Below, in pieces: positions 2,658 to 64,000 of a DNA stretch of 64,000 bases; position 1 is the first letter of the stretch; each line of letters starts with the position of its first letter. The stretch is from Voacanga thouarsii (Eukaryota; Streptophyta; Magnoliopsida; Gentianales; Apocynaceae). The notes under the pieces were generated by a model that saw nothing but the letters and a program-made list of their open reading frames with translations, made no database searches and had not been told where the DNA came from. Position numbers and translations under genes: made by a program. The DNA is taken from assembly GCA_026120185.1 (NCBI GenBank), contig JANUWF010002200.1, positions 3,470,001 through 3,534,000 on the forward strand, read 5' to 3'.

Positions 2658-2690
2658 CGTTATCAGCACGAGTCTCTGCCGTTATTAAAG
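2658..2690 (+). promoter_or_regulatory. Copia A primer-binding-site region
   Basis: The sequence cgttatcagcacgagtctc follows the 5' LTR directly and is repeated next to the 5' LTR of all four Copia copies. It is not the standard TGGTATCAGAGC tRNA-Met complement, so the priming tRNA is not assigned. Position and conservation support a primer-binding role. Confidence 0.6.
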
Positions 2691-2709
2691 CCAGAAGACA
2701 GGTACGCAT

Positions 2710-3290: not shown

Positions 3291-3332
3291 TATTTCCATT
3301 AATAATAAGCATCATATCTTTTATTCATATCA

Positions 3333-4675: not shown

Positions 4676-4737
4676 ATACGCTTTGTGATTTTTGTTTTTG
4701 ATGTTTACTAATGATCGATAAGCTGAGATATATATCG

Positions 4738-4738
<1 letters not shown>

Positions 4739-4770
<32 letters not shown>

Positions 4771-4771
4771 C
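4739..4771. repeat. (TA)n microsatellite in the 5' leader of the captured gene
   Basis: It is a TA dinucleotide run. The same tract, of different length, lies at the corresponding position in Copia B (~24885-24909) and Copia C (~54870-54888), so it came with the captured gene. Confidence 0.8.
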
Positions 4772-4941
4772 GTATGAGGAAGAAGAAGAGGTAGATGGTA
4801 GGTAGAGGGTCGGAGGAGAAGAAAAGACAAGAGAGGAAGATGAAAAGTCGGTGCGGGAAGAGTGAAAAAAAAAATAGATATTTTTCTTGACATTTCCTGC
4901 TTGTCATCATTTTCTTATATTTATTTTCTTATTCTCTTATG

Positions 4942-7135
4942 AAATCATTATTCCCTAAATTAAGGGAGAAACGAGAAACGAGTACAAGAAAGATCGTGAT
5001 TGGACAACATCATTAAATTATCTTGATCCGCATACAAGTACATGTGAACTTGAAGTTCAAAAGATAATTCATTTGTAAAGCATTGCAAATCAAATGCCGA
5101 GACGCTTTTGTTGACTCTAGAAGAGTAACAAAATCGCATATGCCGACTATAAATGCTCCTATTCGAATTGAAGTTCCAGTGAGAACAAAATATTATACAT
5201 ATAGGCTGTTGAGCCAAAAGCATGCCGGAAGCATGGCCGACCTCTTGGTTCTAAAGATAAAAATCCTCGAAAGAAAAGAGGATTAAATGATCCGAGAAGA
5301 TCATATTGAAGAAAAGAATGATAAAGACCAAGAGAGAGCTGATGACAAAGAACCGAGAAGTTGATGAAAGTAACACTGAAATTTCTATCAATTATACCAC
5401 TTACGGTAGAAGTTGGAATCGGATAGAAAGCTGTTATTGATGATATATTTGCATACAATATATCTCTTGATGTTACACGGGATAATGATGATCCTGAACC
5501 AATATCGATTGATGAATGTCGGCATAGAAAAGATTGGCTGCAATGGAAAGATGCGATTCAATCGGAGTTAAATGCAACGGCAAAACGTGAAGTCTTCGGA
5601 CTGCGGTCCGAACACCGAGAAGGTATAAAACCTGTTGGCTACAAATGGATATTTGTGCGAAAGCGCAATGAAAAGAGTGAAATCGTTCGATATAAAGCGC
5701 GATTAGTAGCCCAAGGTTTTTCACAAAGACCAGGTATTGATTATGATGAAACTTATTCTCCTGTTGTTGATGCTATTACACTCAGATATCTTATCGGTTT
5801 GGCGGTACATGAAAAGATAGATATGCGCCTATTAGATGTTGTCACTTTGCTTACTTGTATGGAAATTTAGAAAATGATGTTTACATGAAAATCCCAGAAG
5901 GATTTCATATGCACGAAGCATATAAACATTATCCTCGTGAAAATTACTCCATCAAGTTGCGAGAAATCATTATATGGCACTGAAGCAATGCGGGCGCATG
6001 TGGTTCACACGTCTTAGTGAATATTTATTGAAAGCGGGATTTAAAAATGACCGGGTATGTCCATGCGTTTTTATTAAGAAATGCTGGTTCTAAATTTGTG
6101 ATATTAGCTATATATGTTGATGATATTAATCTTATTGGAACTCTGAAGAGCTCCAAGAAACAATTGATTATTTAAAAAGAGAATTCGAAATCAAGGATTT
6201 TGGTAAAACCAAATTTTGCCTTGGTTTACAAATTGAACATTTGGAGAGTGGAACATTTATTCATCAATCAACATATACGACAAAAGTGCTAAAAGATTTT
6301 ACATGGACAAAGCACATCCATTGAGTATTCCAATGATCGTCAGATCATTAAATGTGGATAAAGATCCTTTCAGACCTCAAGAAAATGATGAAGAACTCCT
6401 TGGTCTGAAGTACCATATCTCGGTGCAATTGGTGCATTGATGTATCTTGCTAATAACACACGGCACTGATATTGCTTTCGTTTGTCAATTTATTAGCAAG
6501 ATTTAGTTCTTCACCAACACGACGACATTGGAATGGAATTAAACAAGTCCTTCGATATCTCCAAGGTACAATTGATCTCGGATTATTTTATTCAAATAAA
6601 ACCAGTCCAACATTGATAGGTTATGCGAGATCTTTGGTTATTTATCGATCCACATAAAGCACGTTCTCAAACGGGCTATCTATTTACATGTGGAAATACT
6701 TGCTATATCATGGCGTTCTACGAAACAATCTATAGCGACTACTTCTTCAAATCATCTTTGAAATTATAGCCATTCATGAAGCAAGTCGAGAATGTGTATG
6801 GCTAAGATCCATGATTCATTATATCCGAGAAAGTTGTGGATTATCATCAATCAAAGGTATTCCAACTCCTCTTTATGAAGACAATGCGGCTTGCATAGCT
6901 CAATTACGAGGAGGATATATTAAAGGAGATCGGACAAAACATATTTCACCAAAATTCTTCTTTACTCATGAACTCCGGAAGAAATGTGAAATTGATGTGC
7001 TACAAATTCGGTCATGTGACAACCTCGCGAGATATTTTCACGAAGACTTTACCGACGGCAACATTTGAAAAGTTGAGATATAAAATCGGTATGCGTCGGT
7101 TTAAAGATTTAAAGGAATCATCTCATCGGGGGAGT
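4942..7135 (+). pseudogene. Copia A reverse transcriptase/RNase H remnant
   Basis: After the capture, homology to Copia D resumes at the aatcattattccctaaat segment (D: 60437). Frame-shifted pieces of the Copia RT (RVT_2) follow, for example [20 protein letters not shown] at 5691-5750, the YVDD catalytic motif (6115-6126), and RNase H pieces with YEDNAACIAQLRG and the C-terminal IFTKTLPTATFEKLRYK-like end. At least ten frameshifts prevent translation as one protein. The integrase is absent. Confidence 0.85.
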
Positions 7136-7249
7136 AATAAACATACATATAGAATAGTGTACTCTTTTTCCTTCACTAGATTTTTTTCCCACTTGGGTTT
7201 TTATCTAGTAAGGTTTTAACGAGGCATATTCTTTATGTATGGATGGACA

Positions 7250-7261
7250 TCCAAGGGGGAG
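7250..7261 (+). promoter_or_regulatory. Copia A polypurine tract
   Basis: The purine run aagggggag lies immediately before the 3' LTR, the expected plus-strand primer. The same tract precedes the 3' LTR in B, C and D. Confidence 0.75.
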
Positions 7262-7615
7262 TGTTATGAATTATTGGAATCTCCATTAATTAGTGGAGGC
7301 TCCACTAATTATGGATTTATGTGAATTATTAGATTTTTATGGATGTCCACCATTTAGTGGAGACACCATTAATTGAAGATGATGTATGCCATGATGTATT
7401 TCACTAATTAGAGCTCTATAAATAGAGCTATTCTCTAAGCTTGTAATACACCATCATTTTGTGAAAGAAAGATTAGTGAAAGAAAGATTAGAGAAAGAAT
7501 TGTGAGAGAAAGAAAGAGAGAAGTTTGAAGAGAAATTCTTGTGCAAAGAATAGTTAGAATTTTCTTAGTGTGTAGTGTGTAGATTTTATTCTAACACTAC
7601 CCTAATTTTATAACA
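7262..7615 (+). repeat. Copia A 3' LTR
   Basis: It is a 354-bp direct repeat of 2304-2657 and is followed by the target duplication ATCTC. Confidence 0.93.
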
Positions 7616-22044: not shown

Positions 22045-22396
22045 TGTTATAAAATTAGGGTAGTGTTAGAATAAAATCTTCACACTACACACTAATAAAA
22101 CTCTAACTATTTTGCACAAGAATTTCTCTCTTTCTTTTCTCTCACAATTTTCTCTAATCTTTCTTTCACTAATCTTTCTTTCACAAAATAATGGTGTATT
22201 ACAAGCTTAGAGAATAGTTCTAATTATAGAGCTCTAATTAGTGGATTACATCATGGCATATATCATCTTCCACTAATCTTAATTAGTGGTGTCTCCACTA
22301 AATGGTGGACATCCATAAAAATCTTCTATTAATTCACATAAATCCATAATTAGTGGAGCCTCCACTAATTAATAAAGATTCCAATAATTCATAATA
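22045..22396 (-). repeat. Copia B 3' LTR
   Basis: It is 352 bp. In element orientation it starts TATTATG instead of TGTTATG and ends ATAACA. The polypurine tract (ctccccctt on the plus strand) follows at 22397. Confidence 0.9.
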
Positions 22397-22496
22397 CTCC
22401 CCCTTGGATGTCCATCCATTACATAAAGAATATGCCTCGTTAAAACCTTACTAGATAAAAACCCAGATGGGAAAAAATCTAGTGAAGGAAAAAGAG

Positions 22497-24700
22497 TACA
22501 CTATTCTATATGTCCATTTATTACTCCCCCGATGAGATGATTCCTTTAAATCTTTAAACCAACGCATACCGATTTTATATCTCAACTTTTCAAATGTTGC
22601 GATCGGTAAAGTCTTCGTGAAAATATCTGCGAGGTTATCACATGACCGAATTTGTAGCACATCAATTTCACATTTCTTCTAGAGTTCATGAGTAAAGAAG
22701 AATTTTGGTGAAATATGTTTTGTCCGATCTCCTTTAATATATCCTCCTCGTAATTGAGCTATGCAAGCTCGCATTGTCTTCATAAAGAGGAGTTGGAATA
22801 CCTTTGATTGATGATAATCCACAACTTTCTCGGATATAATGAATCATGGATCTTAGCCATACACATTCTCGACTTGCTTCATGAATGGCTATAATTTCAA
22901 GCATGATTTGAAGAAGTAGTCGCTATAGATTGTTTCGTAGAACGCCATGATATAGCAAGTGTTTCCACATGTAAATAGATAGCTCGTTTGAGAACGTGCT
23001 TTATGTGGATCGATAAATAACCAAAGATCTCGCATAACCTATCAATGTTGGACTGGTTTTATTTGAATAAAATAATCCGAGATCAATTGTACCTTGGAGA
23101 TATCGAAGGACTTGTTTAATTCCATTCCAATGTCGTCGTGTTGGTGAAGAACTAAATCTTGCTAATAAATTGACAAAGAAAAGCAATATCGTGTCGTGTA
23201 TTATTAGCAAGATACATCAATGCACCAATTGCACTCGAGATATGGTACTTCGAGACCAAGGAGTTCTTCATCATTTTCTTGAGGTCTGAAAGGATCTTTA
23301 TCCACATTTAATGATCGCACGATCATTGGAATACTCAATGGATGTGCTTTGTCCATGTAAAATCTTTTTAGCACTTTTGTTGTATATGTTGATTGATGAA
23401 TAAATGTTCCACTCTCCAAATGTTCAATTTGTAAACCAAGGCAAAATTTGGTTTTACCAAAATCCTTGATTTCGAATTCTCTTTTTAAATAATCAATTGT
23501 TTCTTGGAGCTCTTCAGGAGTTCCAATAAGATTAATATCATCAACATATATAGCTAATATCACAAATTTAGAACCAGATTTCTTAATAAAAACGCATGGA
23601 CATACCTGGTCATTTTTAAATCCCGCTTTCAATAAATATTCACTAAGACGTGTAAACCACATGCGCCCGCATTGCTTCAGTGCCATATAATGATTTCGCA
23701 ACTTGATGGAGTAATTTTCACGAGGATAATGTTTATATGCTTCGTGCATATGAAATCCTTCGAGGATTTTCATGTAAACATCATTTTCTAAATTTCCATA
23801 CAAGTAAGCAAGTGACAACATCTAATAGGCGCATATCTATCTTTTCATGTACTCGTCAAACCGATAAGATATCGGAGTGTAATAGCATCAACAACAGGAG
23901 AATAAGTTTCATCATAATCAATACCTGGTCTTTGTGAAAAACCTTGGGCTACTAATCGCGCTTTATATCGAACGATTTCACTCTTTTCATTGCGCTTTCG
24001 CACAAATATCCATTTGTAGCCAACAGTGTTTTATACCTTCCGGTGTTCGGACCGCAGTCCGAAGACTTCACGTTTTGCCGCTGCATTTAACTCCGATTGA
24101 ATCGCATCTTTCCATTGCAGCCAATCTTTTCTATGCCGACATTCATCAATCGATATTGGTTCAGGATCATCATTATCCTGTGTAACATCAAGAGATATAT
24201 TGTATGCAAATATATTATCAATAACAGCTTTCTATCCGATTCCAACTTCTACCGGAAGTGGTATAATTGATAGAAATTTCAGTGTTACTTTCATCAACTT
24301 CCGGTTCTTTGTCATCAGTTCTCTCTTGGTCTTTATCATTCTTTTCTTCAATATGATCTTCTGGATCATTTAATCCTATTTTCTTTCGAGGATTTTTATC
24401 TTTAGAACCAAGAGGTCGGCCATGCTTCTGGCATGCTTTTGGCTCAACAGCTATATGTAAAATCTTTTGTTCTGTTGGAACTTCAATTAGAATAGGAGCA
24501 TTTATAACTGGCATATGCGATTTTGTTACTCTTCTAGAGTCAACAAAAGTGTCTGGCATTTGATTTGCAATGCTTTACAAATGAATTATCTTTTGAACTT
24601 CAAGTTCACACGCGCTTGTATGTGGATCAAGATAATTTAATGATGTTGTCCAATCACGATCTTTCTTGTACTCGTTTCTATTCTCCCCTAATTTAGGGAA
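22497..24700 (-). pseudogene. Copia B reverse transcriptase/RNase H remnant
   Basis: A 205-codon open stretch (23204-23821) carries the core of the Copia RT with the YVDD motif (IYVDDINLIGTPEELQ) and the FCLGLQIEHLESGTF block. RNase H pieces lie at 22497-23200 (MLQIRSCDNLADIFTKTLP near the end). Many frameshifts occur, several of them at CTG/CAG sites. There is no integrase. Confidence 0.85.
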
Positions 24701-24884
24701 TAATGATTTCACAAGAGAATAAGAAAAGAAATATAAGAAAATGATGACAAGTAGGAAATGCCAAGAAAAATATCTCCTTTTTTTTTTTTCACTCTTCCCG
24801 GTACCGACTTTTCCTCTTCCTCTCTTGTCTTTTCTTCTCCTCCGACCCTCTACCTACCATCTACCTCTTCTTCTTCCTCATACA

Positions 24885-24909
24885 GATATATATATATATA
24901 TATATATGT
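24885..24909. repeat. (TA)n tract in the captured gene leader
   Basis: A TA run followed by atgtatcgatatatat, equivalent to the tracts in Copia A and C. Confidence 0.75.
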
Positions 24910-24972
24910 ATCGATATATATATCGCTTATCGGTCATTAGTAAACATCAAAAACAAAAATCACAAAGCGTAT

Positions 24973-26424
24973 ATGGAGACTCGTAATTCATTTGAGACAT
25001 GGTCAAATTTTGACTTAGTTTCTGCAGCAGATGTTGATGTATTTTCATTTTCAAACCAACCGCTTCGCCTAATTCGAACACGTAAGATTTTGATATGTTT
25101 TCCTTTCCAAACCAACCGCTTCTCGCCTAATTCGAACGCGTAAGATTTTGATATGTTTTCCTTTTCAAACCAACCGCTTCGTCTAATTCGAACGCGTAAG
25201 ATTTTGATATATTTTCCTTTCCAAACCAACCACTTCCTCCTAATTTCAGGTGAGATACCTTTGATGGCTTCCATTTGTTTTTAGTGTGCTTGATAATGAA
25301 ATTAAACTCTCTTTTGGTTTGTTTTTTTATGTAAATCGATGGAAGTTTTGAACATACCGCTTTGGACCAAGTTGATCTGCTCCTACAAGAGACTCGCTTT
25401 TGATATTGTTCCTCTTGATACTATTCATTTGAATGAGGATATGCTTGTGCATGATCCTTTCTACTCTCTAATGGATTTTGAACAAAGCCGTAATATGTTT
25501 CCAGGTTATTATACATTTAAACATGGATTTTGAATGGTATTACCTTTATCGATATTATTTTCTTTTTCTAGGAGAAATAATGAGTGGTCTTGGCAGCGAA
25601 GTCGGAGTAAGTACTCATGAAATGCATAATATCGAAGTTCAAGATATTATTGCAGACAAAATTCCCGGGGAGAAGAAGATGATTAAGAGGCAGAGAGAGA
25701 AGAAGGGCAATAACTCTCAAACACTATCAAGAGAAACAATTTCGCAAGATTTTTACCTACCAATCATGAGCGCAACCAAAGAACCGAATATTGGCATAAC
25801 CCGTCTCAAGAAAAGATGTAGGGAGTTAGGAATTCGTCGATGGCCTCACAGAAATTGGTGAGCTTGGAGACCATAATCAAGAATGTTCGAGTTCTCTCTC
25901 ATACATACTTATAATTTGTAAGTATGAAACTATGAAAGATTTATAAGTAAATAACCGATGATATCACTTCGATTTACAGGATATGCAAAATAAAGAAGAA
26001 GGAGGACATATGGCCGAGAAGAAATTACAAGAAGCCATTGCGATACCGGAATGTGAAAAACAGCTTGGTGGAAGAAAGTCCTAATACGCAGCTTAGAGGA
26101 CCAAACACGTAAATTGAGACAAGCATGCTTCAAGGCCAAATATAATAAGAAATATAATAAACTTAAGGAGATCATAAAATCTCAAGACTCATTTCGCAGT
26201 AATTTTACTGGCTACTTCGCCGCTAGTCTCGATGCCGGCTCAAAAGGGAAAGAAAAGGAGGAGGATGTCGAAAAAGAGGAGTCGAAGTCCATAATTACTA
26301 ATTGTTTGTCGTCCTCTAATGTAAATATTGAAAAAGAACAATTACAAACCTTCATCTTACATTTGTCACTCAATTACAAAAGAGCAACTATAAGCATGTA
26401 TCATCAAGTTCATATGAACACTAG
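24973..26424 (+). pseudogene. Captured RWP-RK (RKD-like) gene, Copia B copy
   Basis: The start codon is at 24973 and the stop at 26422-26424, antisense to the element, with four exons and three introns at the same places as in Copia C. Exon 1 holds four units of the 57-bp repeat but is frame-shifted. Exon 3 reads through the RWP-RK core (LKKRCRELGIRRWPHRN), then shifts at the RK end so the lysine is lost. Exon 4 has small insertions. A polyadenylation-like AATAAA follows the stop. The disruptive differences from the C copy concentrate at CAG/CTG, so true loss of function should not be assumed without read-level checking. Confidence 0.83.
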
Positions 26425-26459
26425 TGCTATGAATAAAAGATGTGATGCTTATTATTAAT

Positions 26460-27060
26460 GGAAATATCTTTTTCCCTTATTATCTTTTCTCGTTCCACTT
26501 CGGTGGCCAGTATTTCTCCGTGATAAGGGAAATATCGAGTGTGTCCATGACCATAACCACGGCCACCGCCACAACTACGACTATAACGATGGCTTCTACT
26601 CGGAGCCAACAAGCATTCACTTCGGGAGTGCCGTTGAGCCGCTCATCCGGCTTCATGATTTCTCAATAATAACTCATGTTAAAGTCGTCAATTTTGGATA
26701 CCCTTTTTCTCGATATTGTTATCGTAGAACATGAAAATTGGAGAATGTCTTCTCCAATATAACTTCATCGCAACTTTTTCTCCGTAAAATTTTTAACTAA
26801 GATGTAGTTTTATACATCACGGAGTTCACGGTTTTACAATCTTGCAACTTCAGTGCAACCATTCATACCGTGCAATGGGTAGTACGACCATCTTCAGTGG
26901 TCAAATCTTTCTTTTTATCCACATGACATATGGATCTCCTTTTTTTTTTAGCATTTAGATGCATTTTTGTATGACATATAAAATTTTTTTTTCGTAAATA
27001 TCAAGGGTTACAAATTCGAATTTAGCGAGATCAATAAATGCGTACTGTCTTCTCGGCTTT
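26460..27060 (-). pseudogene. Copia B gag remnant
   Basis: It is collinear with the shortened gag of A and C, including the Gly/Arg/Tyr-rich tail (about 26520-26600 on the plus strand) and the central block ending in the leader. Frameshifts occur throughout and there is no zinc knuckle. Confidence 0.75.
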
Positions 27061-27065
27061 AATAA

Positions 27066-27089
27066 CGGCAGAGACTCGTGCTGATAACG
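27066..27089 (-). promoter_or_regulatory. Copia B primer-binding-site region
   Basis: It is the complement of the cgttatcagcacgagtctc motif, adjacent to the 5' LTR. Confidence 0.6.
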
Positions 27090-27441
27090 TGTTATAAAAT
27101 TAGGGTAGTGTTAGAATAAAATCTTCACACTACACACTAATAAAACTCTAACTATTTTGCACAAGAATTTCTCTCTTTCTTTTCTCTCACAATTTTCTCT
27201 AATCTTTCTTTCACTAATCTTTCTTTCACAAAATAATGGTGTATTACAAGCTTAGAGAATAGCTCTAATTATAGAGCTCTAATTAGTGGATTACATCATG
27301 GCATACATCATCTTCCACTAATCTTAATTAGTGGTGTCTCCACTAAATGGTGGACATCCATAAAAATCTTCTAATAATTCACATAAATCCATAATTAGTG
27401 GAGCCTCCACTAATTAATAAAGATTCCAATAATTCATAATA
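27090..27441 (-). repeat. Copia B 5' LTR
   Basis: It is the 352-bp partner of 22045-22396. It also carries the TA rather than TG outer terminus, then the duplication AGATG. Confidence 0.9.
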
Positions 27442-34080: not shown

Positions 34081-34105
34081 TAAGAAATTAATAGATAATA
34101 GTAGA

Positions 34106-52111: not shown

Positions 52112-52478
52112 TGTTATAAAATTAGGGTAGTGTTAGAATAAAATCTACACACTACACACTAAGAAAATTCTAACTATTCTTTGCACAAGAATTTCTCTTC
52201 AAACTTCTCTCTTTCTTTCTCTCACAATTCTTTCTCTAATTTTTCTTTCACTAATCTTTCTTTCACAAAATGATGGTGTATTACAAGCTTAGAGAATAGC
52301 TCTATTTATAGAGCTCTAATTAGTGAAATACATCATGGCATACATCATCTTCAACTAATCTCAATTAATGGTGTCTCCACTAAATGGTGGACATCCATAA
52401 AAATCTTCTAATAATTCACATAAATCCATAATTAGTGGAGCCTCCACTAATTAATGGAGATTCCAATAATTCATAACA
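52112..52478 (-). repeat. Copia C 3' LTR
   Basis: It is 367 bp with TG...CA termini, followed by the polypurine tract complement (ctccccctt). Confidence 0.92.
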
Positions 52479-52602
52479 CTCCCCCTTGGATGTCCATCTA
52501 TACATAAAGAATATGCCTCGTTAAAACCTTACTAGATAAAAACCCAGTGGGAAAAAAAAACTAGTGAAGGAAAAAGAGTACACTATTCTATATGTCTGTT
52601 TA

Positions 52603-54700
52603 TTACTCCCCCTGATAAGATGATTCTTTTAAATCTTTAAACCGACGCATAACGATTTTATATCTCAACTTCTCAAATGTTGCAGTCGGTAAAGTCTTCG
52701 TGAAAATATCTGCGAGGTTATCACATGACCGAATTTGTAGCACATCAATTTCACATTTCTTCTGGAGTTCATGAGTAAAGAAGAATTTTGGTGAAATATG
52801 TTTTGTCCGATCTCCTTTAATATATCTTCCTCGTAATTGAGTTATGCAAGCTGCATTGTCTTCATAAAGAGGAGTTGGAATATCTTTGATTGATGATAAT
52901 CCACAACTTTCTCGGATATAATGAATCATGGATCTTAGCCATACACATTCTCGACTTGCTTCATGAATGGCTATAATTTCAGCATGATTTGAAGAAGTAG
53001 CTGCTATAGATTGTTTCGTAGAACACCATGATATAGCAGTATTTCCACATGTAAATAGATAGCCCGTTTGAGAACGTGCTTTATGTGGATCAGATAAATA
53101 ACCAGCATCTTGGAGATATCGAAGGACTTGTTGAATTCCATTCCAATGTCGTCGTGTTGGTGAATAACTAAATCTTGCTAATAAATTGACAGCAAAAGCA
53201 ATATCAGGTCGTGTATTATTAGCAAGATACATCAATACACCAATTGCACTGAGATATGGTACTTCAGGACCAAGGAGTTCTTCATCATTTTCTTGAGGTC
53301 GGAAAGGATCTTTATCCACATTTAATGATCGGACGATCATTGGAATACTCAATGGATGTGCTTTGTCCATGTAAAATATTTTTAGAACTTTTGCTGTATA
53401 TGTTGAATAAATGTTCTACTTGCCAAATATTCAATTTGTAAACCAAGGCAAAGTATACTTTTACGACCATTCTTGATGTCGAATAATCAATTGTTTCTTG
53501 GAGCTCTTCAGGAGTTCCAATAAAATTAATATCATCAACATATATAGCTAATATCACAAATTTAGAACCAGATTTCTTAATAAAAACACATGGACATACC
53601 TGGTCATTTTTAAATCCCGCTTTCAATAAATATTCACTAAGACGTGTGAACCACATGCGCCCGGATTGCTTCAGAGCCATATAATGATTTCTGCAACTTG
53701 ATGGAGTAATTTTCACGAGGATAATGTTTATATGCTTCAGGCATATGAAATCCTTCGGGGATTTTCATGTAAACATCATTTTCTAAATTTCCATACAAGT
53801 AAGCAGTGACAACATCTAATAGGCGCATATCTATCTTTTCATGTACTGTCAAACTGATAAGATATCGGAGTGTAATAGCATCAACAACAGGAGAATAAGT
53901 TTCATCATAATCAATACCTGGTCTTTGTGAAAAAAAACCTTGGGCTACTAATCGCGCTTTATATCGAACGATTTCACTCTTTTCATTGCGCTTTCGCACA
54001 AATATCCATTTGTAGCCAACAGGTTTTACACCTTCTGGTGTTTGGACTGTAGGTCCGAAGACTTCATGTTGTGTCAGTGCATTTAACTCCGATTGAATCG
54101 CATCTTTCCATTACATCCAATCTTTTCTATGCCGACATTCATCAACTGATATTGGTTTAGGATCATCACTATCATGTATAACATCAAGAGATATTATATG
54201 CAAACATATGATCAATAATTGTTTCTATCCGATTCCAACTTCTACCGGAAGTGGTATAATAGATAGAAATTTCAGTGTTACTTTCATTTATGTCTGGTTC
54301 TTTGTCATAAGCTTTCTCTTGGTCTTTATCATTTTTTGCTTTAATATGATCATCTGGACCATTAATCCTCTCTTCTTTCGAGGATTTTTATCTTTAGAAC
54401 CAAGAGGTCGGCTATGCTTCTGGCATGCTTTTGACTCAGCAGCTATAGGTATAATATTTTGTTCTGCTGGAACTTCAATTCGAATAGGAGCATTTATAGC
54501 TGGAATATGCGATTTTGTAACTCTTCTGGAGTTAACAAAAGCGTCTGGCATTTGATTTGCAATGCTTTGCAAATGAATTATCTTTTGAATTTCAAGTTCA
54601 CATGCGCTTTTATGCGGATCAAGATAATTTAATGATGTTGTCCAATCATGATCTTTCTTGTACTGTTTCTGTTCTCCCCTTAATTTAGAGAATAATGATT
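52603..54700 (-). pseudogene. Copia C reverse transcriptase/RNase H
   Basis: An open frame of 255 codons (52603-53370) holds the RT C-terminus and a nearly complete Copia RNase H (VNLLARFSYSPTRRHWNG; YEDNAACITQLRGRY; the C-terminal ADIFTKTLPTATFEKLRYK). About 22 residues are missing in the segment before DAGYLSDPHK compared with D. The RT palm is split over two more frames (53312-53716 with YVDD, 53637-53999) by frameshifts and a deletion near 53465. There is no integrase. Confidence 0.85.
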
Positions 54701-54869
54701 TCATAAGAGAATAAGAAAAGAAATATAAGAAAATGATGACAAGCAGGAAATGCCAAGAAAAATATCTATTTTTTTTTCACTCTTCCCGGTACCGACTTTT
54801 CATCTTCCTCTCTTGTCTTTTCTTCTCCTCCGACCCTCTACCTACCATCGACCTCTTCTTCTTCCTCAT

Positions 54870-54888
54870 ACATATATATATATATATG
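54870..54888. repeat. (TA)n tract in the captured gene leader
   Basis: A short TA run ~70 bp upstream of the ATG, homologous to tracts in Copia A and B, inside a pyrimidine-rich 5' leader. Confidence 0.7.
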
Positions 54889-54958
54889 TATATGTATCGA
54901 TATATATCTCAGTTATCAGTCATTAGTAAACATTAAAAACAAAAATCACAAAGCAGAT

Positions 54959-56352
54959 ATGGAGACTCGTAATTCATTTGAGACATGGTCAAATTTTGAC
55001 TCGGTTTTTGCAGCAGATGTTGATGTATTTTCATTTCCAAATCAACCGCTTCTGCCTAATTCGAACACAGAAGATTTTGATATGTTTTCCTTTCCAAACC
55101 AACCGCTTCTGCCTAATTCGAACGCAGAAGATTTTGATATGTTTTCCTTTCCATACCAACCGCTTCCTCCTAATTTCAGGTGAGATACCGTTGAGGGCTT
55201 CCATTTGTTTTTAGTATGCTTGATAATGAAATAAAACTCTCTTTTGGTTTGTTTTTTATGTAAATCAGTGGAAGTTTTGAACATACCGCTTTGGACCAAG
55301 TTGATCTGCCCCTACAAGAGACTGCTTTTGATATTGTTCCTCTTGATGCTATTCCTTTGCATGAGGATATGCTTGTGCATGATCCATTCTACTCTCTAAT
55401 GGATTTTGAACAAAGCCAGAATATGATTCCAGGTTATTATCCATTTAAACATGGATTTTGAATGGTATTACCTTTACTGATATTATTTTATTTTTCTAGG
55501 AGAAATAATTAGTGGTCTTGACAACGAAGTCGGAGTAAGTACTCATGAAATTTATAATATCGAAGTTCAAGATATTATTGCAGAAAAAATTCTTGGGGAG
55601 AAGAAGATGATTAAGAGGCAGAGAGAGAAGAAGGGCAATAACTCTCAGATACTATCAAGAGAAACAATTTCGCAATACTTTTACCTACCAATCAAGAGCG
55701 CAGCCAAAGAATTGAATATTGGCATAACCTGTCTCAAGAAAAGATGTAGGGAGTTAGGAATTTGTCGATGGCCTCACAGGAAATTGGTGAGCTTGGAGAC
55801 CATAATCAAGAATGTTCAGGTTTTCTCTCATACATACTTATAATTTGCAAGTATGAAACTATGAAAGATTTATAAATAAATAACCGATGATATCACTTCG
55901 ATTTACAGGAGATGCAAAATAAAGAAGAAGGAGGACATATGGCTGAGAAGAAGTTGAAAGAAGCCATTGCGATACTGGAATGTGAAAAACAGTTGGTGGA
56001 AGAAAGTCCTAATACGCAGTTAGAAGACCAAACACAGAAATTGAGACAAGCATGCTTCAAGGCCAAATATAATAAGAAATTTAATAAACTTAAGGAGATC
56101 ATAAAATCTCAAGACTCATTTCGCAGTAATTTTACGGCTAATTCTGCTGCTAGTCTCGATGCTGGCTCAAAGGGGAAAGAAAAGGAGGAGGATGTCGAAA
56201 AAGAGGAGTTGAAGTCCATAATTACTAATTGTTTAGCTTCCTCTAATGTAAATATTGAAAAAGAACAATTACAAACCTTCATCTTAAATTTGTCAACTCA
56301 ATTACAAAAGAGCAACTATAAGCATGTATCTTTAAGTTCATATGAACACTAG
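54959..56352 (+). CDS. Captured RWP-RK (RKD-like) transcription factor, intact four-exon copy
   Basis: Exons 54959-55179, 55269-55432, 55500-55819 and 55909-56352 join in frame through three GT-AG introns (89, 67 and 89 bp) to give 382 aa. Exon 1 has three units of a 19-residue repeat (core FSFPNQPLLPNSNTEDFDM). Exon 2 is acidic with aromatic residues (DPFYSLMDFEQSQN). Exon 3 carries a basic stretch and the RWP-RK DNA-binding domain (LNIGITCLKKRCRELGICRW, then PHRK). Exon 4 is rich in Lys/Glu/Leu heptads, a possible coiled coil. RKD proteins regulate egg-cell and embryo programmes in plants; the Citrus nucellar-polyembryony gene belongs to this family. The gene is antisense to Copia C, with AATAAA just after its stop (56360-56365). 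A Cys replaces the Arg seen in A and B just before RWP. Whether it is expressed is unknown. Confidence 0.85.
55023..55170 (+). repeat. 57-bp coding repeat in exon 1 of the captured gene
   Basis: There are three in-frame units, the last truncated by the exon end. Copia A has two and Copia B four, so the number varies between copies. Confidence 0.85.
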
Positions 56353-56394
56353 TGATATGAATAAAAGATGTGATGCTTATTAATGGAAATATCT

Positions 56395-56985
56395 TTTTCC
56401 CTTATTATCTTTTCTGTTCCACTTCAGGTGGCCAGTATTTCTCTGTGATAAGGGAAATATCGAGTGTGTCCATGACCATAACCACGGCCACTGCCACAAC
56501 TACGACTATAACGATGAGCTTCTGCTGGAGCCAACGAGCATTCACTGCGGAGTCGTTGTTGAGCCAGTTCATCTGGCTTCATGATTTCTCAATAATAACT
56601 CATGTTAAAGCTGTCAATTTTGGATACCCTTTTTCTCAATATTGTTATTGTAGAACATGAAAAGTGGAGAATGTCTTCTCCAATATAACTTCATCAGTAA
56701 CTTTTTCTCCACAAAATTTTTAACTAAGATGTAGTTTTATACATCACGGAGTTCACGGTTTTACAATCTTGCAACTTCAGGTGCAACCATTCATACCGTG
56801 CAGTGGGTAGTACGACCATCTTCAGGTGGTCAAAATTTTCTTTTTATCCACATGACATATGGATCTCATTAGCATTTAGATGCATTTCTGTATGACATAT
56901 AAATTTTTTTTTCAGAAATATCAAGGGCTACAAATTCAAATTTAGCGAGATCAATAAATGCGTACCTGTCTTCTGGCTTTACCAA
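56395..56985 (-). pseudogene. Copia C gag remnant
   Basis: It has the same shortened gag as A and B: leader-proximal ~25 codons, a deletion, then the central gag block and Gly/Arg/Tyr-rich tail. In-frame stops are present and the zinc knuckle is missing. Confidence 0.75.
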
Positions 56986-57009
56986 TGGTAGAAACTCGTG
57001 CTGATAACG
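56985..57009 (-). promoter_or_regulatory. Copia C primer-binding-site region
   Basis: The complement of cgttatcagcacgag abuts the 5' LTR. Confidence 0.6.
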
Positions 57010-57376
57010 TGTTATAAAATTAGGGTAGTGTTAGAATAAAATCTACACACTACACACTAAGAAAATTCTAACTATTCTTTGCACAAGAATTTCTCTTCAA
57101 ACTTCTCTATTTCTTTCTCTCACAATTCTTTCTCTAATCTTTCTTTCACTAATCTTTCTTTCACAAAATGATGGTGTATTACAAGCTTAGAGAATAGCTC
57201 TATTTATATAGCTCTAATTAGTGAAATACATCATGGCATACATCATCTTCAACTAATCTCAATTAATGGTGTCTCCACTAAATGGTGGACATCCATAAAA
57301 ATCTTCTAATAATTCACATAAATCCATAATTAGTGGAGCCTCCACTAATTAATGGAGATTCCAATAATTCATAACA
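57010..57376 (-). repeat. Copia C 5' LTR
   Basis: It is the 367-bp partner of 52112-52478 and is followed by target duplication AAATA. Confidence 0.92.
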
Positions 57377-57516
57377 AAATACACTTTTTTACTTTTTTAA
57401 GGCTATGTTCAGATTAAGAGGAAGGAGTGAAGAGGAAAAATGAGTAATTAGAGGCAAAAGGAAATGAAAGTGCTTACTGTGTTCGAATAATTGATAAGAG
57501 GGAAGGAAAAATAATG
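57377..57516. other. 140-bp spacer between Copia C and Copia D
   Basis: Its purine-rich text (gattaagaggaaggagtg; gggaaggaaaaataatg) has a loosely complementary counterpart after Copia D (63200-63320). The two may be the ends of one small inverted-repeat element split by Copia D, but the match is imperfect. Confidence 0.3.
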
Positions 57517-57870
57517 TATTATGAATTATTGGAATCTTTATTAATTAGTGGAGGCTCCACTAATTATGGATTTATACGAATTATTATAGAAGATTTTTAT
57601 AGATATCCACCATTTAGTGGAGACACCACTAATTGAGATTAGTGGAAGATGATGTATACCATGATGTATTCCACTAATTAGAGCTCTATAAATAGAGCTA
57701 TTCTCTAAACTTGTAATACACCATCATTTTGTGAAAGAAAGATTAGTGAAAGAAAGATTAGAGAAAATTGTGAGAGAAGAGAAAGAGAGAAATTCTTGTG
57801 CAAAATAGTTAGAGTTTTATTTGTGTGTAGTGTGAAGATTTTATTCTAACACTATCCTAATTTTATAACA
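57517..57870 (+). repeat. Copia D 5' LTR
   Basis: It starts TATTATG rather than TGTTATG and ends ATAACA. It has an extra gattagtgaaagaaa unit compared with the 3' LTR. Confidence 0.9.
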
Positions 57871-57895
57871 CGTTATCAGCACGAGTCTCTACCGG
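57871..57895 (+). promoter_or_regulatory. Copia D primer-binding-site region
   Basis: cgttatcagcacgagtctc directly follows the LTR, as in A, B and C. Confidence 0.6.
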
Positions 57896-57971
57896 TACAA
57901 AAGCCAGAAGACTAAGCACGAATTTCTGCCGTTAACAAAACCAGAAGACATGTACGCATTTATTGATCTCT

Positions 57972-58758
57972 ATGGCTAATCTCGCTAAACTCGAATTTGT
58001 AGCCCTTGATATTTCTGGAAAAAATTATATGTCATGGGGTTCTCGATGCAGAAATGCATCTAAATGTTGAAGGCCTTAGTGAAACTATTCAAGCAAATAA
58101 TAGTGCATCTGCACAACACAAGGCTAAAGCTTTGATTTTTATTCGTCGTCATCTCGATGAAAATTTGAAAATGGAATATCTTACCGAAAAAGATCCATAT
58201 GTCCTGTGGGTAAATTTAAAAAAAAGATTTGACCACCTGAAGATGGTCGTACTACCCACTGCACGGTATGAATGGTTGCACCTGAGGTTGCAAGATTTTA
58301 AAACCGTGAATGAATATAGCTCCGCAATGTATAAAATTACATCTCAATTAAAATTATGCGGAAAAAAAGTGACTGATGAAGATATGTTGGAGAAGACATT
58401 CTCCACCTTTCATACCTCAAATATTGTCCTGCAACAACAATATCGAGAAAATGGGTATATAAAATTTACAGATTTAATTACTGCCCTCCTCATTGTAGAG
58501 AAGAATAATGAGTTATTATTGAGAAATCATGAAGCCAGACCAACTGGCTCAACAGCACTCCCAGAAGTGAATGCTGTTGGCTCTAGTAGAAGCCATCGTT
58601 ATAGTCGTGGTTGTGGCCATGGCCGTGGCCGTAGTCGTGGTTATGGTCGTAGACACGCTCGATATTTCCCTTATCACAATTATAATCAAACTGTGAGAAA
58701 TATTGGCCATCTGAAGTGGAACAGAAAAGATCATAAGGAAAAAGAAAAAAGAAATTGA
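57972..58758 (+). pseudogene. Copia D gag
   Basis: It starts MANLAKLEFVALDISGKNY, the typical N-terminus of plant Copia gag. An extra G in the homopolymer after ATGTCATG shifts the frame, and the remaining ~230 codons (to 58758) are open. The UBN2-type capsid block (IRRHLDENLKMEYLTEKDPY; YEWLHLRLQDFKTVNEYSSA) is followed by a Gly/Arg/Tyr-rich tail. A second frameshift in an A-rich run separates it from the zinc knuckle. Gag packages the element RNA. Confidence 0.85.
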
Positions 58759-58759
58759 A

Positions 58760-59041
58760 GAAAAGTATGAGGATATATGTTATAGATGTGGCATGAAAGG
58801 TCATTGGTCACGAAACTGTCGTACGGCTAAGCATTTAGTTGAATTATATCAAGCTACATTGAAAAATAAAAATGTGGAAGCAAATTTTTTTCAACATCTA
58901 ATAAATGATGCTGATGATGATGATATTGATCTTGAAGATTTTAATATCAATATTACCAATATGGATGTATCGGATTTTTTTGAACACCCAGACGGTAGGA
59001 TATACCATTTAATTGGTGATGACAGTGTCCAGAAGAACTAA
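58760..59041 (+). pseudogene. Copia D zinc knuckle and gag-pol linker
   Basis: It carries a CCHC knuckle C-Y-R-C-G-M-K-G-H-W-S-R-N-C (58778-58819), followed by an acidic Asp-rich linker and a stop at 59039. This segment is absent from Copia A-C, where the captured gene replaces it. Confidence 0.8.
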
Positions 59042-59119
59042 AGCCTCACCCTGATATTTTTGTATTTTCATTTTCATTCTATTTTAATAATATTTACGTT
59101 TGCATATATATATTTGTGT

Positions 59120-59580
59120 TCGGATAGGTCATTGTTAATGATGATGTATGCATTATTGATAGTGGAACTACACACACCATACTAAAAAATGAGAAATATT
59201 TTTCTGATCTCAAAATGGGAGAAATAAATATTTATACGATAAACGGTAGTGCAAATGTGATTGAGGGCTCAGGAAGAGCTAGTATATTGTTGCCTAAAGG
59301 AACAACAATTATTATTGATAAGGCACTATTTTCCTCAAAATCCAGAAGAAATTTATTGAGTTTTAAAGATATCCGCAGAAATGGGTATCATGTTGAAACA
59401 AATGAGAAAAATGAGATTGAGCATCTTTTTATTACTCAAATGCATTTGGGTAATAAATCGGTATTAGAAAAACTACCGTCTTTTTCTACTGGTCTATATT
59501 TTGTAAAAATACGTACAATTGAAATTTATCATCTAGTAAACCGAAGTTTACTGATCCTATTACTTTTAGCATTTGGCATG
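59120..59580 (+). pseudogene. Copia D aspartic protease
   Basis: Catalytic D-S-G (CIIDSGTTHT, codons at 59158-59166) heads a frame open to about 59530, with the retropepsin-like LSFKDIRRNGYHVET block. A frameshift lies near 59530, before integrase. The protease would cut the gag-pol polyprotein. Confidence 0.85.
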
Positions 59581-60422
59581 ACCGGTTGGGTCATCCGAGA
59601 TCTACCATGATGAGAAGAATCATTGAGAATGCACATGGTCATCCTTTAAAAAATAAAAGGATATTGACATCAGAAAAATTCGCATGTACTGCATGTTCCC
59701 TAGGAAAATTAATTGTTAAACCATCACCAATAAAAGTAGGAGCTGAAAGTCCTACATTTCTCGAACGGATTCACGGAGATATTTGTGGACCTATTGATCC
59801 ACCATGTGGACCGTTCAAATATTTTATGGTCTTAATTGATGCATCATCCCGATGGTCACATGTATGTTTATTTTCTACTCGCAACCTGGCGTTTGCGAGA
59901 TTACTTGCTCAAATAATTAAATTACGAGCACAATTTTCGGACAATCACATTAAAAATATCCGTTTGGATAATGCTGGTGAATTTTCATCACATGCTTTTG
60001 ATGCATATTGCATGTCAATTGGGATTAATGTTGAACATCCTGTAACTCATGTTCACATAAAAAATGGTCTTGCTGAATCTTTGATTAAACGATTACAATT
60101 AATTGCTAGACCATTATTAATGAAAACAAATCTCCCAACATCTGCCTGGGGACATGCTATTCTACATGTTGCAACACTTGTACGCATAATACCAACTAGT
60201 TATCATAAATTCTCTCCTTTGCAATTGGCTTTTGGGTCAGAACCAAATATTGCTCATTTAAGAATTTTTGGGTGTGCTGTATATGTTCCAATTGCACCAA
60301 ACCAACGTACAAAGATGGGTCCTCAAAGAAGAAAGGAGATATACGTTGGATATGATTCTCCCTCTATTATCAGGTATGTTGAACCCACGACAGGAGATGT
60401 ATTCACGACAAGATTTGCTTGA
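59571..60422 (+). pseudogene. Copia D integrase
   Basis: It has an HHCC zinc-binding head (WHDRLGH and later CTACSLGK) and the catalytic triad: Asp at 59778-59780 (HGDICGPI), Asp at 59967-59969 (RLDNAGEF) and Glu at 60075-60077 (NGLAESLIKR), giving the DD35E spacing. The 278-codon frame is open. An extra T near 60420 truncates the C-terminal end before RT. This domain is missing in Copia A-C. Confidence 0.88.
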
Positions 60423-60429
60423 TTGTCAT

Positions 60430-62603
60430 TTTGATGAATCATTATTCCCTAAATTAGGGGGATAACCAAAACAAGCATAAAAAGGATCTTGCTTGGACAA
60501 CATCATTAAATTATCTTGATCCGCGCACAAGCGCATGTGAACTTGAAGTTCAAAAGATAATTCATTTGCAAAGCATTGCAAATCAAATGCCAGACGCTTT
60601 TGTTGGCTCCAGAAGAGTTACAAAATCGCATATTCCGAGCTTATAAATGCTCCTATTCGAATTGAAGTTCCAGCAGAACAAAATATTATACCTATAGTCA
60701 CTGAGTCAAAAACACGCCAGAAGCGTGGCCGACCTCTTGGTTCTAAAGATAAAAATTCTCGAAAGAAAAGAGGATTAAATGATTCAGAAGATCATATTGA
60801 AGAAAAGAATGATAAAGACCAAGAGAGAACTGATGACAAAGAATCGGAAGTTGATGCAAGTAACACTGAAATTTCTATCAATTATACCACTTCCGATAGA
60901 AGTTGGAATCGGATAGAAACTGTTATTGATAATATATTTGCATACAATATATCTCTTGATGTTACACAGGATAATGATGATCCCGAACCAATATCGATTG
61001 ATGAATGTCGGCATAGAAAAGATTGGCTGCAATGGAAAGATGCGATTCAATCGGAGTTAAATGCACTGACAAAACGTGAAGTCTTCGGACCTGCAGTCCG
61101 AACACCTATTGGCTACAAATGGATATTTGTGCGAAAGCGCAATGAAAAGAGTGAAATCGTTCGATATAAAACGCGATTAGTAGCCCAAGGTTTTTCACAA
61201 AGACCAGGTATTGACTATGATGAAACTTATTCTCCTGTTGTTGATGCTATTACACTCCGATATCTTATCAGTTTGGCAGTACATGAAAAGATAGATATGC
61301 GCCTATTAGATGTTGTCACTGCTTATTTGTATGGAAATTTAGAAAATGATGTTTACATGAAAATTCCCGAAAGATTTCATATGCCTGAAGCATATAAACA
61401 TTATCCTCGTGAAAATTACTCCATCAAGTTGCAGAAATCATTATATGGCCTGAAGCAATCTGGGCGCATGTGGTTCACACGTCTTAGTGAATATTTATTG
61501 AAAGCGGGATTTAAAAATGACTAGGTATGTCCATGTGTTTTTATTAAGAAATCTGGTTCTAAATTTGTAATATTAGCTATATATGTTGATGATATTAATC
61601 TTATTGGAACTCCTGAATAGCTTCAAGAAACAATTGATTATTTAAAAAGAGAATTCGAAATCAAGGATTTTGGTAAAATCAAATTTTGCCTTGGTTTACA
61701 AATTGAACATCTGGAGAGTGGAACATTTATTCATCAATCAACATATACAACAAAAGTGCTAAAAAGATTTTACATGGACAAAGCACATCCATTGAGTATT
61801 CCAATGATCGTCCGATCATTAAATGTGGATAAAGATCCTTTCCGATCTCAAGAAAATGATAAAGAACTCCTTGGTCCTGAAGTACCATATCTCAGTGCAA
61901 TTGGTGCATTGATGTAACTTGCTAATAATACACGACCTGATATTGCTTTTGCTGTCAATTTATTAGCAAGATTTAGTTTCTTCACCAACACGACGACATT
62001 GGAATGGAATTAAACAAGTCATTCGATATCTCCAAGGTACAATTGATTTCGGATTATTTTATTCAAATAAAACCAGTCTAACATTGATAGGTTATGCAGA
62101 TGCTGGTTATTTATCTGATCCACATAAATCACGTTCTTAAACGGGCTATCTATTTACATGTGGAAATACTGCTATATCATGGCGTTCTACGAAACAATCT
62201 ATAGCAGCTACTTCTTCATATCATGCTGAAATTATAGCCATTCATGAAGTAAGTCGAAAATGTGTATGGCTAAGATCCATGATTCATTATATCCAAGAAA
62301 GTTGTGGATTATCATCAATCAAAGATATTCCAACTCCTCTTTATGAAGACAATGTAGCTTGCATAGCTCAATTACGAGGAGGATATATTAAAGGATTGGA
62401 CAAAACATATTTCACCAAAATTCTTCTTTACTCATGAACTCCAGAAGAAAGGTGAAATTGATGTGCTACAAATTCGGTCATGTGATAACCTCGCAGATAT
62501 TTTCACGAAGACTTTACCGACTGCAACATTTGAGAAGTTGAGATATAAAATCGGTATGCGTCGGTTTAAAGATTTAAAGGAATCATCTCATCAGGGGGAG
62601 TAA
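60430..62603 (+). pseudogene. Copia D reverse transcriptase and RNase H
   Basis: The linker (60430-61100) and the RVT_2 core follow: [20 protein letters not shown], then the YVDD motif at 61582-61593 and the FCLGLQIEHLESG block. RNase H ends with TKTLPTATFEKLRYKIG. Stops at 61522, ~61618, ~61915 and ~62139 and frameshifts near 61975 and 62392 inactivate it. Several stops are CAG to TAG or CAA to TAA. Confidence 0.87.
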
Positions 62604-62716
62604 TAAACAGACATATAAAATAGTGTACTCTTTTTCCTTCACTAGATTTTTTTTCCCACTGGGTTTTTATCTAGTAGGATTTTAACGAGGCATATTCTTT
62701 ATGTAATGGATGGACA

Positions 62717-62728
62717 TCCAAGGGGGAG
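62717..62728 (+). promoter_or_regulatory. Copia D polypurine tract
   Basis: The purine run aagggggag directly precedes the 3' LTR. Confidence 0.75.
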
Positions 62729-63067
62729 TGTTATGAATTATTGAAATCTTTATTAATTAGTGGAGGCTCCACTAATTATGGATTTATGTGAATTATTATA
62801 GAAGATTTTTATGGATGTCTACCGTTTAGTGGAGACACCACTAATTGAGATTAGTGGAAGATGATGTATGCCATGATGTAATCCACTAATTAGAACTTTA
62901 TAAATAGAGCTATTCTCTAAGCTTGTAATACACCATCATTTTGTGAAAGAAAGATTAGAGAAAATTGTGAGAGAAGAGAAAGAGAGAAATTCTTGTGCAA
63001 AATAGTTAGAGTTTTATTAGTATGTAGTGTGAAGATTTTATTCTAACACTACCCTAATTTTATAACA
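62729..63067 (+). repeat. Copia D 3' LTR
   Basis: It is 339 bp, starts TGTTATG and ends ATAACA, and lacks one 15-bp unit present in the 5' LTR. Confidence 0.9.
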
Positions 63068-64000
63068 TGTATTAATTTATAATTTTATTTATATTTTGAC
63101 TTGAATAAAAATATTTTAATTAATATACAAATGTTTATTAAAGGGAGTTACTTCCCTATGGATGTCGTCTATTTTAGTAAGTTAGACATTTTTAATTTAA
63201 TCTAATTCCACCATACTCTATTCTCCTTCTTTTCATTTCCTTCTCTCCTAAAAAAGTCAATTCAAATAACCTAAATTGGTTCCTTTATTTTTTCTTATCT
63301 TCCAAATCATTCAATCCAAACTTACTATAGAAGAACAGAGGTAAAATTACCCTTCAAGAATAGCTTTAGGATTTTAGTTCAAATGGATTGATTCAAAATT
63401 TAGTGTATTATCACAATTCAAACTTCCGAGGGAGACAACCATTTATCATGCAATATGTTCTTATCAACATCGTTGTTCCCCCTTATACATTGAGAAGGAG
63501 GAGGGGGGGGGGGTTAGAGAGGACCTATCTTGATCCCTTTTCTATAAGGAAGAGCTCTCTTTCTGCTAGAGCTATACATATACGTGAAACTAGATAAACT
63601 CATTATAAGACATGCATACACTTCTAAGCATTAGATCAGATGAAATCATACCTTCTGAATAACATGATTGAGCAAGCAACAAGGGTGAAATACATTACAC
63701 AACAGAGAGCTCTCATATTAGCAATACTGAGATTGTAACTAAATCTCAAAGTCAAATGAAGATCATTATAGCCTTCATGTCCTGCCCCCTTTCTTCTATT
63801 CCCTTCTTTTTTCTGGGGTTTATCGTGTAAGTACGACCTCATGTCTTCAACATCAAACGCATAAGATGATGACTACAAGAAATGAACGTTTAGAGCAATC
63901 ACACAAGTTAGCTTAACATCTTTTACATGCTAAATGCTGTGAACTGCCCATTTTTACCCCTTCGTTAATTCTGTGAACTAAGCATGGGTGGGAAAAACTC
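63068..64000. other. Right-end intergenic DNA, no gene recognised
   Basis: It contains a poly-G tract (63503-63514) and a minus-strand open frame of 68 codons at 63636-63842 (begins MRSYLHDKPQKKEGNRRKG) that could be a terminal exon of a gene to the right. No domain or splice partner can be identified. Confidence 0.35.

What the first reader, a model, noticed from the sequence alone, without database searches (positions are those of the whole stretch)
54705..56392. Intact RWP-RK (RKD-like) gene captured inside an LTR retrotransposon
Seen: four exons join in frame through three GT-AG introns into 382 codons with an RWP-RK domain and an AATAAA after the stop, all inside Copia C in antisense orientation. 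Known: RKD-type RWP-RK factors control egg-cell and embryo identity, and one underlies nucellar polyembryony in Citrus. Inference: the element may be multiplying a regulator of reproduction, as functional extra copies or as antisense/siRNA sources that affect the parent gene. I know of no described retrotransposon family carrying this gene.
Basis: partly seen in the sequence, partly recalled or inferred. Interest (0 to 1): 0.92.

Follow-up and report, generated by a model that had tools for sequence, protein, structure and literature searches.

The report
Jumping element carrying an embryo-identity gene
A Copia-type jumping element in a plant genome (probably of the coffee family) carries a plant reproduction-control gene (RKD type) with its introns, written backwards inside the element, and sits in this window in three separately inserted copies; it was likely spread with the help of related elements, and whether the carried gene does anything is untested.

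Summary
The gene at 54705-56392 is real: four exons, three GT-AG introns, 382 codons, a Pfam RWP-RK domain (4.7e-21), and RKD-type homology across all exon joins. It lies antisense inside Copia C. Two more copies of the same gene-bearing element (A, B) lie in the window. Each has its own exact 5-bp target duplication, LTRs with 0 or 3 substitutions, and the same capture junctions; a neighbouring relative (D) lacks the gene. This is a young, non-autonomous Copia family that carried an RKD gene through several rounds of retrotransposition. Antisense orientation likely explains why the introns survived. A is a mosaic of B-like and C-like parts.

Limits: only C has an open frame. A and B bear a CAG/CTG-specific error signature, likely a nanopore artefact at CHG-methylated sites, so most of their frame breaks cannot be judged. 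dN/dS between copies is not significantly below 1. Donor gene, copy number and expression could not be tested (the host genome search did not complete nine times). RWP-RK genes overlapping intact LTR elements are already reported in pearl millet, so 'no described family' is too strong. Any effect on reproduction is conjecture.

The parts
52112..57376 (-). Gene-bearing Copia element, copy C (5,265 bp; element sense on -), flanked by exact 5-bp target duplications AAATA (52107-52111 and 57377-57381)
   Evidence: blastn and end inspection
52112..52478 (-). 3' LTR of C (element sense); 3 substitutions in 366 compared to the other LTR; purine tract beside it at 52479
57010..57376 (-). 5' LTR of C (element sense); PBS-position site CGTTATCAGCACGAG just inside, at 56995
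54704..56394 (+). Captured segment in C (approximate ends), replacing about 1.69 kb that relative D keeps (D 58745-60436)
   Evidence: alignment with D
54959..55179 (+). Exon 1 of the RKD-like gene, with a 57-bp (19-codon) in-frame unit whose number varies between copies (one fewer in A, one more in B, relative to C)
55269..55432 (+). Exon 2
55500..55819 (+). Exon 3, holding the RWP-RK domain (protein residues 180-227)
55909..56352 (+). Exon 4 to the stop codon; AATAAA at 56360
52479..54703 (-). pol remnant of C, in several frames; 91% identical to the matching part of D; the one piece scanned (52603-53415) gave no Pfam hit
56395..57009 (-). gag remnant of C (about 76-81% identical to D, with deletions)
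2304..7615 (+). Gene-bearing copy A (5,312 bp), target duplications ATCTC on both sides, 0 substitutions in 353 LTR bases
3289..4940 (-). Captured RKD segment in A (approximate ends); frame broken as assembled
22045..27441 (-). Gene-bearing copy B (5,397 bp), target duplications AGATG on both sides, 3 substitutions in 351 LTR bases
24712..26468 (+). Captured RKD segment in B (approximate ends); frame broken as assembled
57516..63070 (+). Relative D without the gene: Pfam gag (58003-58758), gag-pre-integrase, integrase core and SH3 (59523-60422), RVT_2 (60547-61524)

Best explanation
A Ty1/copia retrotransposon family in this plant genome carries, in antisense orientation, a whole four-exon RKD-type RWP-RK gene, and three separately inserted copies of it lie in this window; it was likely moved by proteins supplied in trans by complete relatives. 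Shown: same capture junctions in A, B and C; a different exact 5-bp target duplication around each; matching LTR pairs; introns present in all three; gene absent from relative D; in D the replaced stretch holds the integrase region. Inferred: the capture happened once, at DNA level (or from an antisense transcript), because the gene is unspliced and reversed relative to the element. In the element's own RNA the introns are reverse-complemented, so they would not be spliced out, and the gene would survive each round of copying. Copies then likely recombined by template switching between co-packaged RNAs, giving mosaic A. Most likely the gene is now a passenger: copies A and B look CHG-methylated by an indirect sequence signature, while C, which lacks that signature and keeps an open frame, is the copy most likely to be expressed. 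LTR-driven transcripts would be complementary to RKD mRNA and could feed small RNAs against the parent gene; neither RNA has been seen.
For: Gene model and domain. Three gene-bearing copies: blastn 93.5-93.6% over most of the gene segment and 91.9-92.7% over its 5' part. Exact duplications ATCTC/ATCTC (A), AGATG/AGATG (B), AAATA/AAATA (C). LTR pairs 0, 3 and 3 substitutions in 353, 351 and 366 bases, about 0-0.33 My with the rate 1.3e-8 quoted in PMC10011142 (my arithmetic). Between-copy divergence of several percent exceeds the within-copy LTR divergence, so the gene-bearing lineages are older than these insertions. Mosaic: LTR window 52112-52411 has 15 sites A=C against 1 A=B; windows 53312-54811 have 46 A=B against 7 A=C; gene windows 55112-56311 have 19, 12 and 16 for A=B, A=C and B=C. 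PBS-position site and purine tract shared by A, B, C and D. Replaced D stretch 58745-60436 covers nearly all of the ORF (59523-60422) with the integrase-region hits.
Against: As assembled, A and B have broken gene frames: 8 and 9 indels in exons, of which 3 and 3 are not beside a CAG/CTG, two of these shared by A and B; and in-frame stops at codons beginning 55127 (A, B) and 55070 (B). A carries S-S and B carries D at Y188/F189, which are invariant in 12 aligned RKDs, so these copies may be dead whatever the artefact. dN/dS does not differ significantly from 1. The donor gene was not found and the copy number in the genome is unknown. D's LTRs differ at 15 substitutions and its ORFs are in pieces, so D is probably not itself the helper.
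Confidence: 0.85

Rival explanations
1. The carried RKD is functional and kept by selection: it gives the host extra RKD dose, or gives the element access to egg-cell or embryo programmes.
For: C is fully open with all invariant RKD residues of the 12-sequence alignment and carries about 255 bp of upstream sequence and an AATAAA. The exon-1 unit varies by whole 19-codon steps. Point estimates of dN/dS are below 1 (A-C 0.63, B-C 0.59).
Against: None of the three gene pairs is significantly below 1 (P 0.18, 0.15, 0.53), and the pol remnant gives similar values (0.68, 1.09, 0.72). A and B are not open as assembled, and conserved Y188/F189 are lost there. The uncorrected ratios of 0.36-0.60 shrink once the transition bias is allowed for.
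Confidence: 0.12
2. The frame breaks in A and B are real: the family carries a dead RKD pseudogene, and C is a lucky or recently gene-converted copy.
For: Indels at 56135 and 56295 are shared by A and B and are not beside a CAG/CTG in C; Y188/F189 changes lie in codons that pass the mask.
Against: CAG/CTG trinucleotides of C differ in 65 of 98 (A) and 69 of 98 (B), against 780 of 5178 and 889 of 5234 over all trinucleotides (odds ratio about 12, P about 3e-31 and 3e-32). 5 of 8 exon indels in A, 6 of 9 in B, and the in-frame stops sit at such sites. The signature is absent from C and D.
Confidence: 0.35
3. The three copies come from duplication of the locus, not from retrotransposition.
For: All three lie within 55 kb.
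Against: Each copy ends exactly at LTR termini with its own exact 5-bp duplication (chance about 1 in 1024 per copy at equal base frequencies, my arithmetic). A lies in the opposite orientation to B and C.
Confidence: 0.03
4. The carried gene acts mainly as a source of antisense RNA or small RNA that silences the parent RKD.
For: The element's LTR-to-LTR transcript would read the whole gene in antisense. Maize LTR elements with captured sequences act as siRNA reservoirs against donor genes (PMC13317346, passage). Antisense CitRKD1 overexpression abolished somatic embryogenesis in Citrus (PMC6090715, passages).
Against: No small-RNA or transcript data were available. The similarity of the carried gene to its living donor is unknown, so the match needed for silencing is untested.
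Confidence: 0.25

Closest known systems
RWP-RK genes overlapping intact LTR elements in pearl millet (PMC10011142; passages, section 8)
   Same: RWP-RK genes lie within intact LTR elements, and LTR expansion is linked with expansion of the gene family.
   Different: A grass and a genome-wide overlap count; the parts I saw do not describe orientation, introns, subfamily, element family or shared capture junctions. Here each is shown for one Copia family.
LTR-captured genes of rice, sorghum and maize, with full-length examples expanded by retrotransposition (PMC3726574; passages)
   Same: LTR elements carrying host genes and copying them.
   Different: The main text has no occurrence of 'antisense', 'intron' or 'RWP'. 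Here the gene is reversed, intron-bearing and an RKD.
Maize Bs1 and tomato Rider/SUN (as described in PMC13317346; passages)
   Same: Retrotransposon with host gene sequence inside.
   Different: Bs1 holds gene fragments from three genes; Rider/SUN is a read-through transduction. Here a whole gene replaces an internal part of the element.
Antisense additional ORFs of Grande, RIRE2 and Retand (PMC11963269; passages)
   Same: An antisense reading frame inside a plant LTR element; nuclear localisation is reported for Grande.
   Different: Those lie between pol and the 3' LTR in Gypsy-type elements (recalled for Grande and RIRE2) and have no known host donor in the passages seen; here an intron-bearing RKD lies within a truncated gag-pol of a Copia.
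CitRKD1 of Citrus polyembryony (PMC6090715; passages)
   Same: RKD-type RWP-RK gene affected by a transposon.
   Different: There a MITE lies upstream of a resident gene with six exons; here a four-exon gene is carried by the element.

Membership tests
Ty1/copia LTR retrotransposon (non-autonomous derivative) | Two matching LTRs with 5-bp target duplication | tested here: met
   A, B and C
Ty1/copia LTR retrotransposon (non-autonomous derivative) | PBS-position site and polypurine tract next to the LTRs | tested here: met
   CGTTATCAGCACGAG and AAGGGGGAG at the expected places in A, B, C and D; the matching tRNA was not determined
Ty1/copia LTR retrotransposon (non-autonomous derivative) | Integrase upstream of RVT_2-type reverse transcriptase | tested here: met
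   Met in the relative D (rve 31.4 bits, just under its cut-off of 32.6; SH3_retrovirus; RVT_2 E 1.2e-37). A, B and C lack the integrase part, and the one C pol piece scanned had no Pfam hit
RWP-RK protein | RWP-RK domain above the Pfam cut-off | tested here: met
   74.9 bits against 29.3
RKD subfamily | Short protein with RWP-RK and no other Pfam domain (NLPs, from recall, add GAF-like and PB1 parts), nearest to proteins named RKD | tested here: met
   Only RWP-RK found; hits are named RKD1 to RKD4 or RWP-RK proteins (120 of 367 listed)
RKD subfamily | Egg-cell or embryo expression and function | not testable with these tools
   No expression data
Captured host gene | Identifiable donor with the same intron positions | not tested
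   Host genome search unanswered nine times
Captured host gene | Present in some members of the element family and absent from others | tested here: met
   A, B and C carry it, D does not

The most novel reading that the evidence does not exclude
The element uses the RKD as cargo for its own benefit: an embryo- and egg-identity regulator expressed from young, unmethylated copies such as C pushes cells towards a germline-like state in which the element can move into the next generation, so that a selfish element is spreading a reproduction switch through the genome.
Probability: 0.07. Interest if true: 0.93.

Novelty: new variant of a known kind. Interest (0 to 1): 0.62.

Why it matters
Gene capture by LTR elements is known, but the captured pieces are often fragments or spliced copies. 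Here a whole intron-bearing transcription-factor gene has been copied repeatedly because it lies backwards in the element. If it is general, the antisense arrangement would be a route by which retrotransposons spread complete genes with introns and upstream sequence, and a simple filter (reversed, intron-bearing genes between LTRs) would find others. The carried gene belongs to a group that controls egg-cell and embryo identity, so extra or silencing copies could touch reproduction. Coffee, a likely relative of this host, is reported to have an RWP-RK expansion (PMC4383925, passage); whether elements like this one contribute is open, and the two protein searches here list no Coffea protein close to the element's (120 of 367 and 120 of 408 hits listed).

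Tried and rejected
Purifying selection: uncorrected dN/dS of 0.36-0.60 looked like constraint, but with a transition bias estimated from non-coding columns no pair is significant, and the pol remnant behaves alike. Rejected as evidence of function.

Taking the frame breaks of A and B at face value: rejected for those at CAG/CTG sites because of the context-specific signature. In A, 26 of 41 altered CTG sites, and in B 26 of 39, became strings containing CG, counted from the commonest outcomes printed; for CAG 9 of 33 (A) and 17 of 33 (B). That basecallers not trained on plant modifications lose accuracy is in PMC7501810 and PMC9749173 (passages). Neither passage set describes this CTG-to-CG pattern, and the search for it found no paper, so the methylation reading is my inference.

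Other relatives: the scan of viral contigs gave no relative. No solved structure matched by sequence at E 0.001. No protein listed exceeds 64% identity, and that over 29% of the query; 120 of 367 and 120 of 408 are listed. Coffee's RWP-RK expansion as the same family: not supported by these lists.

Donor gene and copy number: the genome search did not complete. Intron positions against RKD genes of other plants: not tested, since no plant genomic DNA was at hand.

Literature: ten searches in an open-licence library. Within these I saw no description of an RKD gene in antisense inside a Copia family; subscription papers are mostly missing. The pearl millet overlap is the nearest.

Full report
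Gene model. The product has one Pfam domain, RWP-RK, at residues 180-227 with E 4.7e-21. Aligned with 11 RKD-type proteins (of the 120 listed), it is colinear through all three exon joins and keeps every column invariant in that alignment. The best hits are RKD or RWP-RK proteins, those with the best E-values at 41-47% identity; 367 passed E 0.001 and 120 are listed.

Three copies. A blastn of the gene and of element C against the window showed two more copies carrying the same gene: A (2304-7615, reversed) and B (22045-27441). Each copy ends at LTR termini and has its own exact 5-bp duplication: ATCTC, AGATG and AAATA for A, B and C in window letters. The capture junctions are the same in all three, while D, a relative immediately downstream of C, has about 1.69 kb of its own at that place (58745-60436). 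D shows gag, integrase-region and RVT_2 Pfam hits in copia order; the replaced stretch covers nearly all of the integrase-region ORF. By eye it also covers a zinc-knuckle and a protease-like motif (recalled motifs, no call). A, B and C are therefore non-autonomous as they stand. D's LTRs differ at 15 substitutions and its ORFs are in pieces, so the real helper is unidentified.

Age and history. The LTR pairs differ by 0 (A, 353 bases), 3 (B, 351) and 3 (C, 366) substitutions, about 0 to 0.33 million years at 1.3e-8 per site per year (rate quoted in PMC10011142; my arithmetic). The copies differ from each other by more than that, unevenly: A and C share LTR type (15 against 1 informative sites in the left LTR window), A and B share the pol remnant (46 against 7 in 53312-54811), and in the gene the three are about equidistant (19, 12, 16). 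A-B divergence is 25 of 855 in exons against 9 of 1719 in pol at unmasked columns. So A is a mosaic and more than two gene-bearing lineages existed; template switching between co-packaged RNAs is the likely cause (inference).

How the introns survive. The gene is antisense to the element, so the element's RNA carries the introns reversed and they would not be spliced. The capture cannot be a simple copy of the spliced mRNA; DNA-level repair, or an antisense transcript, is needed (inference). A recent review of gene capture in plants describes transduction and abnormal template switching for retroelements; its text has no occurrence of 'antisense' or 'intron' (PMC13317346, passages).

The CAG/CTG signature. 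Compared with C, CAG/CTG trinucleotides differ in 65 of 98 (A) and 69 of 98 (B), against 780 of 5178 and 889 of 5234 overall (odds ratios about 12). CTG is intact in only 8 of 49 (A) and 10 of 49 (B), and often becomes CCG, CTCG or TCG; CAG is intact in 18 of 51 in both. CAG+CTG per kb is 10.4 and 8.7 in A and B but 19.0 and 16.6 in C and D, while GAC+GTC stays at 14.6-15.4. CAG/CTG is also low in 0-2 kb and 9-10 kb, outside A, so the affected zone is not limited to the elements. I read this as nanopore basecalling at CHG-methylated cytosines; this is inference. It implies that A and B are methylated and C is not, and it makes most frame breaks in A and B unreliable. Against that, 3 of 8 exon indels in A and 3 of 9 in B are not at such sites, two are shared, and residues Y188/F189 are changed in both.

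Selection. With masked columns (1257 of 5482) removed, 255-256 codons remain. At kappa 3.02, dN/dS is 0.93 (A-B), 0.63 (A-C) and 0.59 (B-C), with P 0.53, 0.18 and 0.15 against neutrality; the pol remnant gives 0.72, 0.68 and 1.09. There is no evidence for constraint and little power.

Host. In a tree with 47 of the 120 listed RKDs, the element protein groups with Oldenlandia (90/80), then with Coffea and Cinchona (93/95), on a long branch (1.08); these supports are below the program's starred level and the bootstrap had not settled. The neighbouring F-box/LysM gene (first exon at 50237-50875) groups with Cinchona, Coffea and three unnamed proteins at 97/98, from 31 of 120 listed hits and with the window row filling 39% of columns. 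The host is probably in or near Rubiaceae, and the donor was probably the host's own RKD. The coffee genome hub paper reports an RWP-RK expansion in Coffea canephora (PMC4383925, passage).

Known work. In pearl millet, RWP-RK genes overlap intact LTR elements and the authors link LTR expansion with growth of the family (PMC10011142, passages and section 8). Rice and sorghum have hundreds of LTR-captured genes, some full length and expanded (PMC3726574, passages). Antisense additional ORFs exist in Grande, RIRE2 and Retand (PMC11963269, passages). So the kind is known; the variant, a whole reversed intron-bearing RKD in a Copia with several recent copies, is what is new as far as ten searches of an open-licence library show.

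Not reached. Donor, genome copy number, expression, small RNAs and methylation were not examined; the genome search did not complete nine times.

Noticed in passing
window 0-10 kb (copy A and flanks) and 22-28 kb (copy B): CAG/CTG-specific corruption of the assembly, likely a basecalling artefact at CHG-methylated cytosines; it could serve as a rough methylation map of the assembly.
   Followed up: partly
window 33118-34600, 35255-35749, 38981-39598 (-), 46864-47529 (-): Endogenous-pararetrovirus-like ORFs (Pfam movement protein, caulimovirus coat domain, a sub-threshold aspartyl protease hit, RVT_1, RNase H) as scattered pieces.
   Followed up: no
window 42755-46652: Direct repeats with 1,799-bp spacing, three copies at 96% identity, in the pararetrovirus-like zone.
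   Followed up: no
window 50237-50875 (-): First exon of an F-box/LysM gene (At1g55000-like), which groups with Cinchona and Coffea.
   Followed up: partly
window 15186-15719 (-): ORF with a sub-threshold FIST_C match (E 2.4e-05).
   Followed up: no
exon 1 of copies A, B and C (C: about 55011-55175): A 57-bp, 19-codon unit differs by whole units between copies: one fewer in A (net -56 as aligned), one more in B (net +57) than in C.
   Followed up: partly
C 54704-56394 and D 58745-60436: The captured segment and the D stretch it replaces are almost the same length (about 1,691 and 1,692 bp), perhaps by chance.
   Followed up: no
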